Positions 3,161 through 18,092 of a stretch of DNA of 64,000 nt are shown here, piece after piece; within the stretch, counting starts at the first letter, position 1; the number at the start of each line of letters is the position of its first letter. The DNA lies in the NCBI RefSeq assembly GCF_000430585.1, contig NZ_AUMH01000004.1, positions 1 through 64,000 on the forward strand. The letters are read 5' to 3'. The notes beneath the pieces were generated by a model. The model did not search any database. It saw only the letters and a program-made list of their open reading frames with translations, and was not told where the DNA came from. Source of the stretch: Alicyclobacillus herbarius DSM 13609. GTDB taxonomy: Bacteria; Bacillota; Bacilli; Alicyclobacillales; Alicyclobacillaceae. A program made the translations under genes and the position numbers.

Positions 3161-6100
3161 TTATTCATCCAGGTCTTCCGACTCGTTTTCTGCGAGCAAT
3201 TCCGCCTGTTGAATCACGAGGTCAATGGCCATTTTCTCAAGGTCGGGTGGATACCCGTATTTCTTTAGTAGCCTTTTGACGGTGACCCGCATCTGCGCAC
3301 GTACATTTTCACGCAAAGTCCAATCCACGGTGATGTTCTTCTTGATGGCTTGGGTTAACTCGTGCGCGATTTGCTTGAGTACTAAGTCACCCATCAACTC
3401 CTTGGCCGAATCGTTCGCAGATAAGGCCTCGTAGAACGCGGCTTCTTCCTTCACGAGACCAAGGTCTTCGCCGCGCTTGACGGCCTCGTTCATCTCTTTG
3501 GCCATCTGAATCAATTCTTCAATCACTTGCGTCGTTTCAATCGTACGGTTGTTGTACTTGCGAATGGCTTGCTCGAGCATCTCGGAGAACTTCCGGGATT
3601 GCACGATGCTGGTGCGCGAGACCGCCTTCACCTTGCCTTGCAGGAGCCTGCGCAGCAATTCCACCGCGAGGTTCTTCTGCTTTAAGCCCCGGACGTGCTC
3701 TAAGAACTCATCCGACAGGATGGCGATGTTTGGCTTTTGCAACCCGACGGCGTCGAGGATGTCCACAACTTCCTCGGAGACGATAGACTTGGAGATCAGC
3801 TGATTGAGCTGGGCATCCAGCTCGCGGGTTGTTTTCTTCTTGTTCTCCGTTGTGATGAGTTTGACGATGCCAGATTTGACGGCCTTGAAGAAGCTGATCT
3901 CCAGATTGACCTCTTCGGCAGCGGCTGTGGTCGCACACAAGGCGTACGCCCGGGCCAGCTCCGTCGTCCAGTTGAGGAAGTTCTGCTTGCCCTCCTCTCC
4001 AAGGCCAAGGACATAGTCCACCGTTTCCACAATGGCTTTCATCCTGTCCGCTGCCCTCTCCGAAGTGAACCTGCTGTAGTCGTGCCCGTGCAGCAGCTCG
4101 CGAATGAGTTGCAGCTTCTCCAGCATAAAGTCCACTGCGGCGTCTGTGTCGATGCCGGCCGTTTTCCGGTCGTTTTCCGTGTACTGCTGCAGCGCCGACT
4201 TCAGCATGTCCGCAATCCCGATGTAATCCACAATCAGGCCACCCGGCTTATCCCGAAAGACTCGGTTGACGCGCGCAATCGCCTGCATCAGGTTATGGCC
4301 TTTCATCGGCTTGTCGATGTACATGGTGTTCAGGCACGGCACGTCAAACCCAGTCAGCCACATGTCACGGACTATCACAATCTGGAGCGGATCGTCCACA
4401 TCTTTCATCCGCTTCGCCAAGTACTCGCGGCGGCGCTTGGTGCCAATGTAAGGTTGCCATTCCTCCGGATCGCTCGAGTTGCCGGTCATGACGATTTTGA
4501 TTTTGCCCTCGCTGTCGTCGTCGCTGTGCCACTGCGGGCGTAGCGCGACGATGGCCTTGTATAGGTCGATGGCAATGCGACGAGACATCACGACAATCAT
4601 CACCTTGCCGAACATAGCCGCCTGGCGCTGCTCAAAGTGCTCCACGATGTCTTTCGCGATCTGTTTGACCCGTTTTTCCGATCCCGCTAGTGCCTCCAAC
4701 CTGGCCCACTTGGACTTGAGACGCTCACGCTGGGTGTATTCCTGGTACTCCGTAATCTCCTCGTACTCGTCGTCGATGACTGGCCGCTCCGCCTCGGACA
4801 GCTCCAACCGGGCGATGCGGCTCTCGTAATAGATCTTAACCGTGGTCCCGTCCTCCACCGCGCGTGTCATGTCATACACGTCGATGTAGTCGCCGAAGAC
4901 CGCCGGCGTATTCTTGTCGGTCAACTCGACGGGCGTCCCCGTGAACCCGATGTACGATGCGTTGGGCAGGGCGTCCCGCATGTACTTGGCGTAGCCGTAT
5001 GTAATTTCCGCCCCGTTCTGACGCGCGACGATTTCCGCCTGAAATCCGTACTGGCTGCGGTGCGCTTCGTCTGCGATGACGATGACATTTTTTCGGTCGG
5101 TTAGAACAGGGAGCGTGTCCTCATCATCGTCTGGCGCAAACTTTTGCACGGTCGTGAAGATGATGCCGCCTGATTCCACGGACAGCAATTCGCGTAGATG
5201 TGCACGGCTCTCAGCCTGTTGGGGCATCTGTCGAAGCAAGTCCTGTGATTTACTGAAAGTGGTAAACAATTGGTCATCGAGATCGTTCCTGTCCGTCACC
5301 ACGACGATGGTGGGATTGTCGAGCGTGAGTACCAGCTTTCCCGTATAGAAGACCATGGACAGGCTTTTTCCCGACCCTTGCGTGTGCCAGACGACGCCAA
5401 TCTTCCTATCCCCTTCGTCCATGGTAGCGCGCAGGGTGCTCTCGATGGCCTTGTTGGTCGCATGGTACTGGTGGTAGCCGGCCAGAATCTTGATGAGGTT
5501 TTCTCCGTCCGTCTGAAACAGGACAAAGTGCTTCATGATGTCGAGCAAGCGCCGCTTCTCGAACATCCCCTTAATTAGCACTTCGAGCTGAGGCAGCGAA
5601 GACGGCGCGACGTCGTCGCCATCCACCGTGCGCCACATCATGAAACGGTCTTCGTCGGCTGTTAGCGTGCCAGCGCGAGCGTTGACCCCGTCGCTGATGA
5701 CGAGGAACGAGTTATACGTAAACAGTGACGGAATCGCGCTTTTGTAGGTTTGCACTTGGTTGTACGCGTCGCTGATGCCGACTTCCTCGTTGGAAGCGTT
5801 TTTCAGCTCCACCACCGCAATCGGGAGCCCGTTCACGAACACAACGATATCTGGCCGCTTCTCCTGATTCTCCACCACAGTAAACTGATTGACCACTAGA
5901 AAGTCGTTGTTCTCCACGCGATCCGGATCTGTCTCGAACACCCAGACCTTTTCGGTCCGGTACTCACCGTTACCTGCGGGAACCTGCACGTCGATGCCGT
6001 CCGTGATCATCTTTTGAAACGCCCGGTTATTGATGAGCAGGCTGGGACTCTGTGGCACCTCGATGAGGCGAATCGCCTCTTCGATGGCTTCCTGAGGCAC

Positions 6101-6307
6101 GCGTCGGTTGATGCGCTGCAAAGCCTCACGCAGTCGATCTTTCAAAATCACGTCGTGATAGGATTCCCGCTCTGGGTATTCGCCGCCCGGCGAGATTTCC
6201 GGACCGTATGCCCGGTCGTAGTTTAATTCCTCGAACCACTCCAACGCAGCCTGTTCGAGGTCGCTCTCGTTATAGGATGGGTGGTACACTGCGGCGCGTT
6301 CGGACAT
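3161..6307 (-). CDS. hsdR: Type I restriction enzyme, R subunit
   Basis: A 1048-residue HsdR, the DNA-translocating and cleaving subunit of a type I restriction-modification complex. The N-terminal nuclease domain has a PD-(D/E)xK core (D153, E167, K169). The SF2 motor carries Walker A HTQGSGKS (about 308-315) and a DEAH box (413-416), followed by helicase-type domain 2 with the TGFDVP and QAIARVNR motifs. The C-terminal helical region, which usually contacts the methylase core, is present, and length is normal. Its start overlaps the hsdS stop by one base (TGATG), implying translational coupling. It is the last gene of a four-gene operon and appears intact. Confidence 0.96.
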
Positions 6308-7677
6308 CAGCGCATCTCCTCTAGCTCTGCCTCTTCTATTGGCACACGGATTTCCCCGGACATGAGTTTGGGGAGCAGGGCGTCGCGGATTTCGGCAAGT
6401 TTATGGGCTTGTGCCCCCAACAACTGTATAGTCCTATATAACTCGTGAAACATGCTTGCATATTGCCTGGCGACTTCTATCGTCGGAATGGCCACGCGAT
6501 GGACATTGAGCAAACTCGTGATGTCAAGGTTCTTGATCCCTGTCGTACCGTTCTCATATTGAAAAAGGATACCTTCTTGGTACAAATAGGACAGGTAGCT
6601 GTAGAGATAATCACCGTAATCAGATAACGGTTTAATGACTCGACAAAAGTTGGTGCATATCAATGGCGCTTCAAATTTCTGTAGGATTTCGTCCACAATC
6701 AGCACCGCTCTCCCCGTCGACTGTGTTGGGCTACCTCCTGAAATCTCAATCACGATGTCGCCATGCGATAGAACTTTCCTTGAAACATTCTTAGGTAGGA
6801 TGAAACGGCGTGGAACCTTTCCAAGTGCACCCTTTCTAAGTTCGGGGATGTCTGCTCCACGGATACAAGATACTTCGTGCACGTGATTTCCTTGCGGACT
6901 GTCTTTCCCCCAATCTCCACCTGATATTGCGATAATTAAGTCTTGGATACTCCCAACCTGCCATCCCTTCGGGATGGGACCCAACTCACTTTCCTCAAAC
7001 TCGCCGCCACTCGCCTTGTACGGATCTCCATCCTCATTCGGAAACTCAAAGTCGACGAACCAGCGCTTAAAGAGGGCCTGGGCTATTTCCTCGAGGTTCT
7101 TGTTGATGGCGTTGTTAAGTTCTATTTTGTCGTCCAGAGACGACAATATGGATGTAATTGCGATTTGATCAGCTAACTTGGGCGCTTTAATCTCCAAATT
7201 AGCCATTATTTTCGTATTTAACGAAGGCATGGTAGCCCCGACTGCAATATTGCGAACGTGCTCCTTAAAAGTTTCAAGCCCAAAATAATAGGATAGATAC
7301 CTGGGATATATTCGCTTGGTATCGATCACACGTACACGTAAACACCGACCAGAAAACAGCCATCCATCTTCCTTTCGAGAAACGTATGCCCGCCTATCAA
7401 CAGAACCGACCCTGCTGAATACAATGTCGCCCTCTCTGAGGGTATATTTGTTTAGCCGAGTTGCGTCTTCGTCGGATACAAATGGAGTATTCTCATGGAT
7501 TATCCTATTCTCACCCAGATGTTCAACGGTAATAATAGGAGTCCCGCTCTCTACATAGTCTTCCTTGTGCAGCTGGCTTCCAAAAGGCCCCGTCTGTACA
7601 TTGGCGATATCGCCAATTTTGAATGTTTCCCACTCAAAACTCAAACCCAATCCCCCCCAATCGCTTGCGAATTTCAT
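6307..7677 (-). CDS. hsdS: Type I restriction-modification specificity subunit S
   Basis: A 456-residue HsdS with the usual two-repeat plan: target recognition domain 1 (about 15-165), central conserved helix (about 170-240, containing [13 protein letters not shown]), TRD2 (about 250-410), and a C-terminal conserved helix ending in [12 protein letters not shown]. Each TRD reads half of a bipartite DNA site, and the helices set the spacer. The first ~15 codons overlap the 3' end of hsdM. The ATG at 7677 lacks a good ribosome binding site, while an in-frame TTG about 33 bases later follows a G-rich run, so the true start may be slightly internal. The stop overlaps the hsdR start. Confidence 0.94.
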
Positions 7678-9157
7678 CTTCCAATTGCCGCGACTTCGCG
7701 AACTGCTCAGCCAGTTCTGCCGTCAAGCGAGCCATTTTCTCCTCAAACGGTTCGCCATCTTCCTCGACCTCTTCGATACCGACATACCGGCCCGGGGTCA
7801 AAATGTACTCGTGCTCCTGGACTTCAGCAAGCTTGGCCGCATAGCAGAATCCCTTCACATCCTCGTACGTCCCGGCTTCACTCTGCCCGCGCCACGCGTG
7901 ATATGTATCGGCAATCTTGCGGATGTCGTCCGGTGTCAGCTCGCGATGCGTGCGGTCCACCATCTGCCCCATCTTGCGGGCATCGATGAACAGGATTTCG
8001 TTACGGCGATCCCGCAACCCCTTCGGCGCTTTGTTCTTCGCGATGAACCACAGGCATACCGGGATTTGCGTCGAGTAGAAGAGCTGTCCGGGCAACGTGA
8101 CGATGCAGTCCACAAGCCCCGCCTCGACAAGATTTTTCCGAATCTCGAACTCGGCGGTCGTGCTGGTCGACATCGATCCGTTCGCTAACACAAACCCGGC
8201 CACGCCGCTCGGAGCCAATTTGTTCACGATGTGCTGAATCCACGCGTAGTTGGCGTTCCCGGCTGGAGGCACACCGTACGTCCAGCGAGCGTCTTCGGTA
8301 AGCCGTTCACCGCCCCAGTCGCTCACGTTAAACGGCGGATTGGCAAGGATGAAGTCGGCCTTCAGGTGCTTGTGCAGGTCGTTGTGAAACGTGTCTGCAT
8401 TGTGTGGGCCCAAGTTGCCGTCAATCCCGCGAATGGCCAGGTTCATTTTGCACAGCCGCCAGGTGGTGGGATTGGACTCCTGACCGTACACCGCAATGTC
8501 GCCGATTTTCCCCTGATGCTCTTCCACAAATTTTTCACTTTGGACAAACATACCGCCCGATCCGCAGCAGGGATCGTACACACGCCCCTTAAACGGCTGA
8601 ATCATCTCTACGAGCAGTCGCACCACGCAGGTAGGGGTGTAGAATTCGCCGCCGTTTTTCCCTTCGGCGCTGGCGAATTTGCTCAGGAAGTACTCGTATA
8701 CCCGTCCCAACACATCCTTGGCGCGGCTCTCCCGGTCGCCCACCTTGAACGAAAACAGGTCAATCACTCCGCCGAGCCGCGTCTTGTCGAGCGCCGGCCG
8801 CGCGTAATCCTTCGGCAGTACACCCTTGAGTGACGGGTTTTCCTTTTCAATCGCAATCATCGCGTTGTCGATGATTTGGCCAATCTCCGGCTTCTTTGCG
8901 TTGGCCTGAATGTGACTCCAACGCGCCTCTTTTGGCACCCAGAAAATGTTTGCCGCAGTGTATTCGTCACGGTCTTCCGGATCGGCATAGGGCTCATGCT
9001 TTAACGCCTCGTACTTTTCCTCAAAGGCGTCTGAGACGTACTTTAAAAACAACAGTCCAAGCACGACGTGTTTGTATTCCGCCGCGTCCATGCTGCCACG
9101 GAGCTTGTCGGCCATACTCCACAGCTTTTCTTCAAATCCGATATTTGCCGTCGCCAC
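7634..9157 (-). CDS. hsdM: Type I restriction-modification DNA methyltransferase M subunit
   Basis: A 507-residue N6-adenine methyltransferase. An N-terminal helical domain precedes the SAM-binding motif I ([10 protein letters not shown], about 195-204) and the catalytic motif IV NPPF (273-276). It would methylate adenines in the site read by the S subunit, protecting host DNA and forming the core of the restriction complex. The start is a GTG with AAGGAGG about 10 bases upstream, 14 bases after the preceding gene. The 3' end overlaps hsdS by 44 bases. All key motifs are intact, in contrast to the methylase-like protein encoded just upstream. Confidence 0.96.
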
Positions 9158-9171
9158 GGTCTATGTCCTCC

Positions 9172-10767
9172 TTAGTACAACTCACAGTAGAGTTGGTTTT
9201 TGACCTGCTCCCACCGGGTGGTCGCGTCCCGAATGGCAGATAAATAGCGTTCTTTCTCTTTTAAATAGCGTTCAATGATGCTGCGCTGTTGCTCTTCCGA
9301 AATCAAAGGCACCTCGATGTCCCCGACGTCGGCCGCGTTTAAGTTCATCACCGTTGTTCCCCTCTGGAAACGCTGAATCAGCGCTGTACCCGTCGGGCTT
9401 TCGAGGAATATTTTTGCGAAATGGCTCAAAATAGCCTTCTTAAATCGCAGAACCAGAATATTGGCGGACGCGATGACCATGCCGTCGGTCTCCGGAAAGA
9501 CGGCAAGTTTTGTCACAGTCCCACGGCATGTTATGACCAAATCCCCAGGTAGAATCTCGTAGCGCTTCACTTTGCGCTCTTCCTCATCGATGGTGTCCAA
9601 TCCACGCAAGTCTACCTCTCCATCCTGGAGATTCGATATGTTCAACACACGTATATTTCCAGCCTTTATGTCCTGCTTCAAAATGGACTTGCCACGGAAG
9701 ATATCCGCCACATCCCGCAGCTTCACCTTAGGAGTCGCAGCTTGTTGGTAATCACGGAGTACATCCTCATTGACATCAAGTAATACGTCAATCCGCCAAT
9801 TATCCAGCAGCCGAAACTTGTCCGGATGAACGGAAACCTGTTGTTCCGGGACCAGCTTCGTACTTTCCAGTGCAAACCGTCCAAGAACAACCTCGTCAGG
9901 AGGGGTGTTTCCAAATTCAACCTGATACGTTTTCACAGACGTAAAAGGACGGAACAACCCTTCGGGTAGTGCATAAATCGAGTGTACTGGAGCTTGTTCA
10001 TTCGTTTTTTGCCGCCAAGCGGCGATATCTCCAGATTGGAAAACCACGCGCGCAGGAAGGGTGGTACTGAGTCGACCGCCCCCCCGCAGCAACGGTAGGA
10101 GATGATTTATCGCGACAGCCTCAGCTTCCCTGGTCGTGGTTTCGAGGCCCTCGCTCACCTTTGTGCCGAAGTCCGGGATCGTCAAAATGGCGTCAAATCT
10201 AGTCTCAAGCGGCAGCGGCTGATAAATGGAGCCTTGAATTACGGTGACATTGGGGAACGGATCGAAATACGTTTTCAACAACCGCCCGAGGACATAGTTT
10301 TGCGTCAGCAACGTCATCGAGAACGGCTGTAGATAACACTTGGTTTCCATCAAACCCCATATGTATTTCTCCGCCTCACAGAACAGCAAGGACTGATACC
10401 GTCGTTTCCGACACGTTTCAATAAATCGCTCGACGATTCCAGGATGAACCATGACGGTCCCCGTCACTCTATCGCGTCGCAGGGTTTCGCAGGCGTACTC
10501 CAGTAAGTCTAAATCCTTGCCGGCGTGGTACAACTTGAAGAATAAGTCCTGGTCACCAGGAAAGTGGCCAAATTCCCGTTCCCCGACTCCTTCCTTCATA
10601 AAGCGAAAGAGTTGCTCCGGATTCGAAGAGATCTCTTCTCCATTCTCGGTCTGCTCTAATTCTTGTTTGGTCCGTCCGACGCGAGCGGCTTCCCGGAGCA
10701 GTTGATCCCGAGAGGTTATTTCATGCAACAGGCAGATGTTCCAAAACGAATCCTTCACCTGGCTCAC
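9172..10767 (-). CDS. Degenerate N6-methylase/HsdS single-TRD fusion, first gene of the restriction operon
   Basis: A 531-residue protein. Residues ~100-300 follow the layout of an HsdM catalytic domain, with FDAILTIPDF at 191-200 where active enzymes have a (D/N)PPF tetrapeptide. The motif I region (around LLFCEAEK) has no Gly-rich SAM loop. Residues ~347-530 resemble one HsdS recognition half: VKLRDVADIFRGKSI, then NISNLQDGEVDL, then a late helix with QQRSIIERYL. I infer a catalytically dead methylase fused to one DNA-recognition domain, possibly an alternative specificity or regulatory subunit for the M/S/R genes downstream. The start is a GTG with only a weak ribosome binding site in a ~20-base leader. 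No named family is claimed. Confidence 0.75.
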   Translation of the reverse strand: MSQVKDSFWNICLLHEITSRDQLLREAARVGRTKQELEQTENGEEISSNPEQLFRFMKEGVGEREFGHFPGDQDLFFKLYHAGKDLDLLEYACETLRRDRVTGTVMVHPGIVERFIETCRKRRYQSLLFCEAEKYIWGLMETKCYLQPFSMTLLTQNYVLGRLLKTYFDPFPNVTVIQGSIYQPLPLETRFDAILTIPDFGTKVSEGLETTTREAEAVAINHLLPLLRGGGRLSTTLPARVVFQSGDIAAWRQKTNEQAPVHSIYALPEGLFRPFTSVKTYQVEFGNTPPDEVVLGRFALESTKLVPEQQVSVHPDKFRLLDNWRIDVLLDVNEDVLRDYQQAATPKVKLRDVADIFRGKSILKQDIKAGNIRVLNISNLQDGEVDLRGLDTIDEEERKVKRYEILPGDLVITCRGTVTKLAVFPETDGMVIASANILVLRFKKAILSHFAKIFLESPTGTALIQRFQRGTTVMNLNAADVGDIEVPLISEEQQRSIIERYLKEKERYLSAIRDATTRWEQVKNQLYCELY

Positions 10768-10793: not shown

Positions 10794-10828
10794 ATTATAC
10801 ATACTCAGATTTAGTATCGCAATACTAA
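10794..10828 (-). promoter_or_regulatory. Restriction operon promoter with embedded inverted repeat
   Basis: On the minus strand, TTGCGA (10817-10822) and a perfect TATAAT (10794-10799) are separated by exactly 17 bases, placing the transcript start about 20 bases before the first gene of the restriction operon. The -35 hexamer lies in a perfect 7-bp inverted repeat, TTAGTAT (10811-10817) and ATACTAA (10822-10828), with a 4-base centre. That is a typical position for a repressor or autoregulator operator. The binding protein is unknown. Confidence 0.7.
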
Positions 10829-15516: not shown

Positions 15517-15587
15517 CTCTTAAGCCCCGTAATCGAGTTGGACAATCTCCCTAATCCATGAGACCATTAGGTCAGGAGGTTGTTCAC

Positions 15588-15929
15588 GTGGAACGTCGGA
15601 AATTTACTCCAGAGTTCAAACGCCAAGTTGTCGAACAGGCGATCGCCGCCGGGAACAATTCCGTTGTGGCTCGGAAGTACGATATCCGTCCGAATCTTGT
15701 TAGCCGATGGGTCCGCCAGTATAAAGCTGGCCAATCCATGCAGGGCAGCAGTCCGAAAGGAAACGCTACCCATGTCACCCAGCAGGAACATGCTCAACTC
15801 GTCGCAGAGAACCGTGAATTGGACAAGCAAAATGCCCATCTCAAACAGCTTCTGGGCGAGAAAGACCTTGAAATTGCCATTTTGCGTGACCTGCTAAAAA
15901 AACAGAGCCCTCACTTGCGGATAAAGTAG
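15588..15929 (+). CDS. IS3-family transposase OrfA (DNA-binding part)
   Basis: 113 residues from a GTG with AGGAGG eight bases upstream. It has an N-terminal helix-turn-helix (RRKFTPEFKRQVVEQAI then VARKYDIRPNLVSRWVRQY), followed by a leucine-rich coiled coil (LVAENRELDKQNAHLKQLL) as in other IS3 OrfA proteins. It would bind the element's ends and regulate transposition. A longer in-frame start at 15558 lacks a ribosome site. The reading frame ends 27 bases after the slip site, where a -1 shift leads into OrfB. Confidence 0.9.
   Translation: MERRKFTPEFKRQVVEQAIAAGNNSVVARKYDIRPNLVSRWVRQYKAGQSMQGSSPKGNATHVTQQEHAQLVAENRELDKQNAHLKQLLGEKDLEIAILRDLLKKQSPHLRIK
15896..15902 (+). other. Probable programmed -1 frameshift site
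   Basis: A run of seven A residues is read in the OrfA frame as A-AAA-AAA and followed by C, a canonical slippery heptamer. The -1 frame is open from here through the orfB start region to 16858, so slippage would yield the OrfAB fusion transposase, as in other IS3 elements. Confidence 0.75.
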
Positions 15930-15973
15930 CCATTGCGCACAAGTGGATCACAGCCGGGTATAACGCTACTCTC

Positions 15974-16858
15974 GTGCTGCGCATAGTGGGGGTCTCTCGA
16001 TCCACTTATTACTATCAGTTAACACACGAGCCAAAACCGCACACTACCTCGGGTGGGCGCCCGATTCCTGGGTACTCACTAACTGCGGAGGGCCGCAAGG
16101 TCAGCGATGAGCAGATCAAGGAATGGATTATGGAGTCCATTGCCGGAGATGGTTACGCCTACGGGTACCGCAAGCTGACCCACATGCTCAGACAAGACCA
16201 TGGACTCGTGATCAACGAGAAAAAGGTGTACCGCCTGTGTAAGGAACTGGATATCCTGCGGCCGCAACGGAAACTCCGTCATACACACCCGAGGAAGCTG
16301 GCACAGAACCGTACCATCACGGCACCAAACCAGCTCTGGGAGGTGGACGTCAAGTACGGGTACATCGCAGGAGAGGACCGCTTCTTCTTCGTACTGTCGT
16401 ACATCAACGTGTATGACAGGCAGATTGTGGGATACCATATCGGTTTAACCTGCGAAGCCAGACATGCCGTCGAGACGTTTCGAGCAGCACTGTGGAAGCG
16501 TCAGATTCTTCAGTGTCATATACCGTTGCCCACCGTCCGTTCGGATAACGGCCCGCAGTTCGTGAGCAATTTATTTGAATCGGAGTGTGAACGATGGAAT
16601 GTCGTACACGAGCGTATACCACCCAAAACGCCAAATATGAACGCCTACATCGAGTCGTATCACAGGCTCCTGGAGGATGAGTGCTTGTCAATGTACGAGT
16701 TTCAGACCTACGCAGAGGCGTATCAGGCGGTCGTCGAATTCGTGACCCGATACAACAACCGCCGGCTGCACTCGAGCCTGCATTACCTGTCCCCGTCGGA
16801 GTTCTACCGCCGTCATATCGAGACAGGGCTCGAGCCTAGACGCCCTGTGAGGGTGTGA
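15974..16858 (+). CDS. IS3-family transposase OrfB (catalytic part)
   Basis: A 294-residue integrase-core transposase. After an HTH_21-type region (GDGYAYGYRKLTHML), the rve catalytic domain shows the DDE triad: D in LWEVDVKYG, D in VRSDNGPQF, and E in AYIESYHRLLEDE about 35 residues later, then a typical C-terminal YNNRRLHSSL. The listed GTG at 15974 may not be the main start, because the frame is open back to the slip site at 15896-15902 and the active protein is probably the OrfAB fusion. All catalytic residues are present. Confidence 0.9.
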   Translation: MLRIVGVSRSTYYYQLTHEPKPHTTSGGRPIPGYSLTAEGRKVSDEQIKEWIMESIAGDGYAYGYRKLTHMLRQDHGLVINEKKVYRLCKELDILRPQRKLRHTHPRKLAQNRTITAPNQLWEVDVKYGYIAGEDRFFFVLSYINVYDRQIVGYHIGLTCEARHAVETFRAALWKRQILQCHIPLPTVRSDNGPQFVSNLFESECERWNVVHERIPPKTPNMNAYIESYHRLLEDECLSMYEFQTYAEAYQAVVEFVTRYNNRRLHSSLHYLSPSEFYRRHIETGLEPRRPVRV

Positions 16859-17027: not shown

Positions 17028-18092
17028 TCAATATCGGGAGCATGTGTCCAATCTACGGGTGTTAATCCGTAAACGTGAATGGGTGGCCCAGAAATACCAT
17101 TTGTCCAGAAACGGTTTGGCCAGAACTTTCGGTTGCTGCCATAATTCTTTGAAGTTCATTTGCAAGTGGTACGCCCGCACGGTTTTGAGATTCTGTTTAC
17201 TCAGCGTCGAAAGCATTTTGGATTGAGCTGCCGTCAGCTTGTTTGGATTCTTGAGCCAAACATAGCGGGAACGTTTCAGTTCCGGATGTTTGCGTTGCTC
17301 GTCCCTACGAACCGCGTCCACTGCCTCGGATAGAACCTTGACCACATGGAACTTGTCAAACGTAATCGTGGCATTCGGGAACACTTGCTTGGTACCCGTA
17401 ATAAAGGCTGGAGACATATCGCAGGAGACGGTCGTTACATTCTCGGGATGTCCCTTATGGCTCCGAAAGTCCTTGGCAAAAGCCTCTACAGTCGCGGCAT
17501 CCTTGCCTGGTGTGACAAACAAAACCTTTCGCTCATCAATATCGGCAACAACGGTGACGTACTGATGTCCGCGTGCCACAGAGGTTTCATCGATGGAAAT
17601 GCGGCTGACGTTGGAGAAATCCTCTTTGTCACGGGCCTTTTGAACGTAATGCTGGATGATACGCCAGATTCGTTTATCTCGTTCACCAACAAGTCGGCCG
17701 ACGGAACTGACAGACATCTCCCTGGCCAATTGAATCACGTATGCCTCAAACAACTTGGTGAAATGACTGGACTTTCTCGACCATGGAACGTTTACCAGCC
17801 TGACACCGTTGCTACTTTCACTTGAGCAGTCATGACACCACACACGTGGTACTCGGGCATGCAAGTGTGTTTGATGCTCAAAATAGTTGACATGACGCCA
17901 TGTGTGCTCCTTCCGGTCATAAATGTCTGTGTTTGTTCCACCGCATTCAGAACAGGGGAATTTTGCGCCTTTGCGATAATCAAGCTGGATATCCAGGCGT
18001 TTTTGCGCTCGACTAAACTCTACGGAAGAGACGTACCATGGTTCGTCGATGCCAAGCGACTCCGTGAACAAAGCCAGAACTGGATCATGCAT
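17028..18092 (-). pseudogene. ISL3 transposase, N-terminal fragment
   Basis: 354 codons covering the N-terminal zinc-ribbon region (CSECGGTNTDIYD and CHDC), the helix-turn-helix, and most of the DDE domain (SIDETSVARGHQYVTVVADI, FDKFHVVKVLSEAVD). The last ~19 codons, after WATHSRL, come from inside the IS3 element and are foreign. The missing C-terminal ~70 residues lie at 15299-15516. Interruption rather than decay caused the loss: no other frameshift or stop is seen, which points to recent disruption. Confidence 0.9.

What the first reader, a model, noticed from the sequence alone, without database searches (positions are those of the whole stretch)
9172..10767. Dead-methylase/recognition-domain fusion heads a complete type I restriction operon
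The operon has standard hsdM, hsdS and hsdR, so the first gene is extra. Its N-terminal half keeps the HsdM-like layout but replaces the catalytic (D/N)PPF with IPDF and lacks the Gly-rich SAM loop. Its C-terminal half is one HsdS-type recognition domain. It could swap specificity (a half-HsdS pairing with the normal chain), block restriction, or recognise modified or foreign DNA as a separate defence arm. This looks like an accessory subunit; novelty was not tested against databases.
Basis: partly seen in the sequence, partly recalled or inferred. Interest (0 to 1): 0.75.

Follow-up and report, generated by a model that had tools for sequence, protein, structure and literature searches.

The report
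Dead methylase regulating its restriction operon
A bacterial restriction (anti-virus) operon starts with a gene built from a burnt-out DNA methylase joined to one DNA-recognition domain, and comparative evidence suggests that this protein works as a switch binding a conserved palindrome in its own promoter to control the operon, a role for which restriction-enzyme recognition domains were not known.

Summary
The ORF is real. Residues 1-333 have an HsdM fold without the SAM loop or the catalytic (D/N)PPF. Residues 335-531 are a single HsdS-type recognition domain (TRD) plus a 40-residue helix. It heads hsdM-hsdS-hsdR, and where found in Bacilli it almost always sits just 5' of this hsdM type. 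Unlike HsdS, which varies freely, it co-evolves with HsdM and HsdR. New here: nearly every homologue has the palindrome TTRGTATnnnnATACYAA in its promoter, often centred on the -35 box (window 10811-10828, TTGCGA-17 bp-TATAAT). It was found in 23 of 24 initial loci and is perfect in 8 of 9 held-out ones. 18 hsdMSR loci lacking the gene do not have it. It also precedes stand-alone TRD genes in streptococci (orthologues of crystallised 'Esub1') and one orphan copy, so it follows the TRD, not hsdM/S/R. A half-HsdS homodimer should bind such a palindrome. Best reading: a catalytically dead methylase-TRD fusion acting as transcriptional autoregulator, probably repressor, of a type I restriction operon; like a C protein in role, not in fold. 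Binding and repression are inferred, not measured.

The parts
9172..10767 (-). Gene X: degenerate HsdM-like domain + single TRD + C-terminal helix, 531 aa; proposed autoregulator of the operon
9763..10767 (-). Residues 1-335: HsdM fold without SAM loop or catalytic motif
   Evidence: fold match 3lkd Z 25.2, 2okc Z 23.8; motif loss in all members
10165..10179 (-). IPDFG (residues 197-201) at the place of the catalytic NPPF motif IV
10366..10386 (-). LFCEAEK (residues 128-134; family consensus LIAEAEK) in the region where HsdM has the DPxxGSGG SAM loop
9298..9762 (-). Residues 336-490: HsdS-type target recognition domain
   Evidence: Pfam Methylase_S; 8vsq/8vsr Esub1, E 3e-27, Z 25
9178..9297 (-). 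Residues 491-530: single long helix, proposed dimerisation arm
   Evidence: predicted structure; dimerisation inferred from half-HsdS precedent
10811..10828 (.). Palindrome TTAGTAT-nnnn-ATACTAA, proposed operator; the only match (up to 2 mismatches) in the window and the only perfect match in the genome
10817..10822 (-). -35 element TTGCGA, at the centre of the palindrome
10794..10799 (-). -10 element TATAAT, 17 bp from the -35
7634..9157 (-). hsdM (intact DPCCGSGG and NPPF)
6307..7677 (-). hsdS
3161..6307 (-). hsdR

Best explanation
Gene X encodes a catalytically dead, HsdM-derived protein that keeps one HsdS-type TRD. It is a sequence-specific DNA-binding autoregulator of the X-hsdM-hsdS-hsdR operon, most likely a repressor. 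Proposed mechanism: two X chains pair through the C-terminal helix, as half-HsdS chains are known to do, so that two identical TRDs face the palindrome RGTA-N6-TACY in inverted orientation. In the window that site surrounds the -35 box, so bound X blocks RNA polymerase. When X is scarce, as when the operon enters a new host, the promoter is open; accumulating X then limits restriction. SHOWN HERE: the anatomy, the loss of the methylase motifs, the conserved linkage to hsdMSR, the palindrome, its link to X and TRD-only genes and its absence from X-less operons, and its overlap with promoter elements. INFERRED: that X itself binds the site, that it binds as a dimer, and that binding represses (activation, or a C-protein-like dual effect, is possible where the site lies upstream of -35). 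The role of the dead methylase half is not known; it may clamp DNA or sense HsdM/HsdS.
For: (1) 23 of 24 promoters of X or TRD-only genes match at least 12 of 14 defined positions; 0.14 expected from Markov shuffles. (2) Held-out test: X genes found later, mostly outside Bacilli, have a perfect site in 8 of 9 assessable cases, and the ninth has 12/14 with one extra spacer base. Streptococcal TRD-only genes: 16 of 22 at 12/14 or better, 0.23 expected. (3) Controls: 18 loci with the same hsdM-S-R type but no X have no site of 13/14 or better. Whole genomes: perfect site in 20 of 30 with X or the TRD-only gene, 0 of 28 without. (4) The site follows X even where hsd genes are missing (L051), differ (L052), or where other genes sit between promoter and X (L035). 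The TRD is the only shared module. (5) Operator centre coincides with -35 in about two thirds of promoters, including TTGACA-18-TATAAT in L118, L120 and L121; information content falls off at the palindrome's edges. (6) The TRD of X is conserved and co-evolves with HsdM (r 0.93), unlike HsdS (r 0.30). (7) RGTA-N6-TACY has the bipartite geometry of type I sites, made palindromic as for a half-S dimer (established knowledge). (8) Fusions with a degenerate motif IV carry such a palindrome with one extra spacer base (L175 VPPF, L058 NVPF); fusions with intact NPPF (L055, L056) do not.
Against: No binding, footprint or expression data exist here. In roughly a third of promoters the palindrome lies 18-29 bp upstream of -35, which fits activation or dual control as well as repression. 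The consensus was derived from the first set, so only the later sets are out of sample. Some streptococcal orthologues (L133-L135) show no clear site. The half-sites resemble those of the repressor FapR, though with a different spacing. The fold comparison shows an HsdM fold and does not by itself exclude SAM binding.
Confidence: 0.78

Rival explanations
1. X is an alternative or inhibitory specificity subunit: it pairs with HsdM/HsdS, redirects or blocks methylation and restriction, and the promoter palindrome is just its recognition site found by accident or a site for protective modification.
For: X has an HsdS TRD and an HsdM fold that could engage the complex; strict co-inheritance with HsdM and HsdR.
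Against: TRD not diversified. The site is kept at one place, the promoter, and is nearly unique in the genome; a methylation target would be spread over the genome. TRD-only genes and the orphan L051 have the site without hsdM. Methylase motifs are lost.
Confidence: 0.1
2. The palindrome is the operator of another regulator (a FapR-like or global factor), and X has an unrelated function.
For: FapR binds a similar 17-bp palindrome, TTAGTACCAGATACTAA (PMC5028935), in Bacilli.
Against: The FapR site is TTAGTA-N5-TACTAA; here the spacer is N6 in nearly all X promoters. FapR is reported only from Bacillus-related genera and C. difficile relatives (PMC5052256), yet the site is present in streptococci. 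X-less hsd operons of the same class lack it, and the perfect site is absent from 28 X-less genomes.
Confidence: 0.09
3. X binds the palindrome mainly as an activator, or as a C-protein-like dual switch (activates from an upstream site, represses from a -35 site). This is a variant of the best explanation, not exclusive of it.
For: About a third of promoters have the site 18-29 bp upstream of -35, some with a degenerate second copy near -35; L047 and L048 have two strong tandem sites 20 bp apart.
Against: In the window and most others the single site is centred on -35, and L118, L120 and L121 have a near-perfect sigma-70 promoter that needs no activator.
Confidence: 0.25
4. X is a sensor of modified or foreign DNA forming a separate defence arm.
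For: Location in a defence operon; it keeps a DNA recognition domain.
Against: No nuclease or effector domain was found; the conserved promoter site is unexplained.
Confidence: 0.03

Closest known systems
Esub1 of Streptococcus (PDB 8vsq, 8vsr; co-crystal with prophage protein Prx/paratox)
   Same: TRD plus helix homologous to X residues 335-531 (31-32% identity, Z 25); orthologous genes carry the same palindrome upstream.
   Different: Lacks the methylase half; its orthologues sit next to a DUF2130 gene, not hsdMSR. No function is stated in the entry titles; the paper behind them was not available.
Type I HsdM (EcoKI, EcoR124I, StySJI)
   Same: Fold of residues 1-333.
   Different: No SAM loop, no NPPF; carries its own TRD.
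Type I HsdS and half-HsdS
   Same: TRD of the Methylase_S family followed by a helix.
   Different: Only one TRD, fused to an M-like domain; conserved instead of variable.
C (controller) proteins of R-M systems, including the C homologue upstream of the hsd locus of Mycoplasma gallisepticum (PMC12707154)
   Same: First gene of the operon, palindromic operator at the promoter, proposed autogenous control.
   Different: C proteins are small HTH proteins; X has no HTH match and uses a TRD.
RptR, repressor of type I R-M islands (PMC12255303)
   Same: Encoded upstream of hsdM; represses its own promoter; site conserved with the gene.
   Different: 9-kDa four-helix protein binding TAGCTA repeats, in Gammaproteobacteria.
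Dual-function methylase repressors M.SsoII, M.Ecl18kI, M.EcoRII (PMC3978073, PMC12707154)
   Same: A methylase-derived protein controls its own R-M operon.
   Different: Methylases with an added repressor domain; X is dead by sequence and would bind through its target recognition domain.
CamA / M.TaqI-type methylase + TRD proteins
   Same: Overall layout of methylase then TRD.
   Different: Those are active enzymes.

Membership tests
HsdM / N6-adenine methyltransferase | HsdM-like fold | tested here: met
   3lkd_B Z 25.2, 3.3 A over 326 residues; 2okc_A Z 23.8
HsdM / N6-adenine methyltransferase | Motif I Gly-rich SAM loop and motif IV (D/N)PPF | tested here: not met
   Absent in all 23 members: EAEK region and IPxF instead
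HsdM / N6-adenine methyltransferase | Methylates DNA | not testable with these tools
   needs an assay or methylome
HsdS | Methylase_S TRD | tested here: met
   PF01420, E 7e-9; all 23 members match
HsdS | Two TRDs in one chain with two conserved helical regions | tested here: not met
   One TRD and one helix only
HsdS | Hypervariable recognition sequence between related operons | tested here: not met
   TRD of X median 52% identity, r 0.93 with HsdM; HsdS 33%, r 0.30
R-M controller (by role) | Gene co-transcribed at the head of the R-M operon | tested here: inconclusive
   Layout and promoter position fit; transcription not measured
R-M controller (by role) | Conserved operator-like site overlapping its own promoter | tested here: met
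   with controls
R-M controller (by role) | Binds the operator and changes transcription | not testable with these tools
   EMSA and reporter needed
C protein family (HTH) | HTH DNA-binding domain | tested here: not met
   No HTH family in Pfam or NCBIfam scans; the model is HsdM fold + TRD
Esub1-like TRD proteins | Homologous TRD + helix and same upstream palindrome | tested here: met
Esub1-like TRD proteins | Binding by prophage protein Prx | not tested
   known for Esub1 from the PDB entry title only

The most novel reading that the evidence does not exclude
Restriction-enzyme recognition domains have given rise to a new class of transcription factor. A graded series runs from intact methylase-TRD fusions, through decayed ones, to the dead X proteins and finally TRD-only proteins such as streptococcal Esub1. 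The degenerate members regulate their own promoters through a type-I-like bipartite palindrome, and X does so as the controller of type I restriction operons across Bacillota.
Probability: 0.6. Interest if true: 0.85.

Novelty: new variant of a known kind. Interest (0 to 1): 0.74.

Why it matters
How type I restriction operons control their expression, above all on entering a new host, is largely unknown; only a C homologue in a Mycoplasma and RptR in Gammaproteobacteria are reported in the papers read (PMC12707154, PMC12255303). If true, this is a third and mechanistically different controller, spread through Bacillota. It shows that a TRD can work as a transcription factor, offers a function for the crystallised protein Esub1, and gives a short, directly testable operator. 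It also warns that genes annotated 'N-6 DNA methylase' or 'subunit S' next to hsdMSR may be regulators.

Tried and rejected
Literature searches for Esub1, its PDB codes and for type I autoregulation by TRD or HsdS-like proteins found no description; the paper behind the paratox-Esub1 structures is not held. FapR was considered as the binder of the palindrome and set aside on spacing and distribution. MADS was considered because of weak matches to MAD5 (36 bits against a cut-off of 400) and set aside. cysK, divergent from X in the window, was considered as the target of the palindrome; the neighbours upstream of X differ between many loci while the palindrome stays with X. A first upstream scan of the held-out loci used the wrong strand for minus-strand matches and was redone. 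Upstream scans of partial matches (L124-L128, L153) fell inside the ORF and were redone from the ORF start. Of the control loci, L102 has a 12/14 hit 25 bp before hsdM, but with a broken core (GTTT/ATAG), and was counted as background.

Full report
WHAT IS THERE. The ORF at 9172-10767 (-) encodes 531 aa and heads an operon-like run of genes X, hsdM, hsdS, hsdR. Pfam sees one Methylase_S domain (347-498) and a sub-threshold N6_Mtase trace. The AlphaFold model is confident (pLDDT 89.6). Its residues 1-333 match HsdM structures (3lkd Z 25.2, 7vru 24.9, 2okc 23.8), and 335-531 match Esub1 (8vsq Z 25.0). In hhalign against an HsdM profile, the HsdM NPPF falls on IPDF and the Gly-rich loop has no counterpart. 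Across 23 members from several families of Bacilli both motifs are gone, yet P198, F200 and K134 are invariant. Judged by sequence, the protein has long been dead as a methylase but kept under selection.

HOW COMMON AND WITH WHAT. 22 of 399 sampled Bacilli genomes have a full-length X. None of the other 40 genomes of the window's family does, so the window copy was probably acquired horizontally. In 20 of 22 inspected loci X lies directly 5' of an hsdM of the same class (followed by hsdS and hsdR where the contig reaches and the genes are intact), in some with a small 170-aa gene between. L051 is an orphan X. L052 has only distant hsdM genes downstream. Over 17 operons the pairwise identities of X follow those of HsdM (r 0.91) and HsdR (r 0.92), whereas HsdS does not follow HsdM (r 0.30). 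The TRD of X is better conserved (median 52%) than HsdS (33%). That argues against a role as a variable specificity subunit.

THE PALINDROME. Reading the upstream regions showed one palindrome before nearly every X gene. The consensus is TTRGTATnnnnATACYAA. It reaches 12/14 or better in 23 of 24 loci (0.14 expected) and 13/14 or better in 21 (0.0 expected). In the window it is at 10811-10828, is the only match with up to 2 mismatches, and is the only perfect one in the 3.3-Mb genome. Its centre is the -35 hexamer TTGCGA, 17 bp from TATAAT. About two thirds of the promoters share this arrangement; L118, L120 and L121 have TTGACA inside the palindrome and TATAAT 18 bp on. In the rest the site lies 18-29 bp upstream of -35, sometimes with a weaker second copy, and L047/L048 have two strong tandem copies.

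IS IT TIED TO X? Three tests. (a) Held-out X genes, mostly from other classes of the phylum and found later, have a perfect site in 8 of 9 assessable cases; L116 has 12/14 with a one-base longer spacer and L123 ends at a contig edge. (b) 18 operons with the same hsdM type (56-87% identity), hsdS and hsdR but no X have no site of 13/14 or better anywhere in the stretch; the one 12/14 hit close to an hsdM start (L102) has a broken core. (c) Whole genomes: a perfect site in 20 of 30 with X or the TRD-only gene, and in 0 of 28 without.

THE TRD IS THE COMMON FACTOR. In streptococci a 198-aa protein that is only the TRD and helix, orthologous to Esub1, carries the same core palindrome upstream: 16 of 22 new loci at 12/14 or better, 0.23 expected. 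It has no hsdM match in the 1.5-kb flanks and lies near a DUF2130 gene in 20 of 24 loci. A third architecture, 600-680-aa methylase-TRD fusions, also often precedes hsdM-S-R. In the fusions examined, intact NPPF (L055, L056) goes with no such palindrome; altered motif IV (L058 NVPF, L175 VPPF) goes with the palindrome with one extra spacer base; L057/L059 (SPPF) have a related inverted repeat; L173 (HPPL) and L174 (NFPF) have none. The numbers are small, so this trend is a lead.

MECHANISM. Type I sites are two 3-4-bp half-sites split by 6-8 bp, one per TRD, and a homodimer of half-HsdS chains reads a palindrome (established knowledge). RGTA-N6-TACY is such a site. The simplest model is an X dimer reading it and, in the window, covering -35 to repress the operon. 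The anatomy, the site and its link to X are shown; binding, dimerisation and repression are inferred. An activator or dual switch is open, above all for promoters with the site upstream of -35.

WHAT IT IS CLOSE TO. In role it resembles C proteins and RptR (PMC12707154, PMC12255303). In idea it resembles methylase-repressors such as M.SsoII (PMC3978073), which use an added regulatory domain. In parts it is HsdM plus half an HsdS. None of these uses a TRD as a transcription factor. From memory only, not checked here: the work behind 8vsq/8vsr reported Esub1 as one of several DNA-binding-type partners of the prophage protein paratox. FapR's 17-bp site (PMC5028935) is the nearest known look-alike and differs in spacing and distribution (PMC5052256).

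VERDICT. It is an unusual type of controller and worth a direct binding test.

Noticed in passing
L129-L132, about 480 bp downstream of the promoter site: A second perfect copy of the palindrome lies inside the TRD-only gene in the four closest streptococcal orthologues; possible intragenic operator or coding coincidence.
   Followed up: partly
L176:2301, L178:2359, L177:2591, L180:2562: Further perfect palindromes in two Streptococcus genomes: before a membrane-protein gene (L176), before a transporter-component-like gene (L178), and at the pyrF 3' end in both species; perhaps a wider Esub1 regulon.
   Followed up: partly
L035:3675-8185: A sigma-70-like factor and a helicase-like gene sit between the palindrome and X, making a longer operon (judged from translations).
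   Followed up: partly
L041:9193-9705, also L035:9870-10379: A 170-aa protein without Pfam match lies between X and hsdM in several loci; a RhuM-like gene lies between hsdM and hsdS in L041.
   Followed up: partly
L055-L059, L173-L175: Methylase-TRD fusions with progressively degenerate SAM and NPPF motifs, several 5' of hsdM-S-R, some on plasmids.
   Followed up: partly
L129-L152: TRD-only gene near a DUF2130 gene in 20 of 24 streptococcal loci; DUF2130 function unknown.
   Followed up: no
window 15558-16858 and 17028-18092: Two transposase-type genes (IS3-like pair; ISL3-like 354 aa, perhaps truncated) a few kb from the restriction operon, consistent with a mobile neighbourhood (judged from translations).
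   Followed up: no
L039:8252-9768: hsdM next to X is split into two ORFs in this genome while X and its palindrome stay intact.
   Followed up: no
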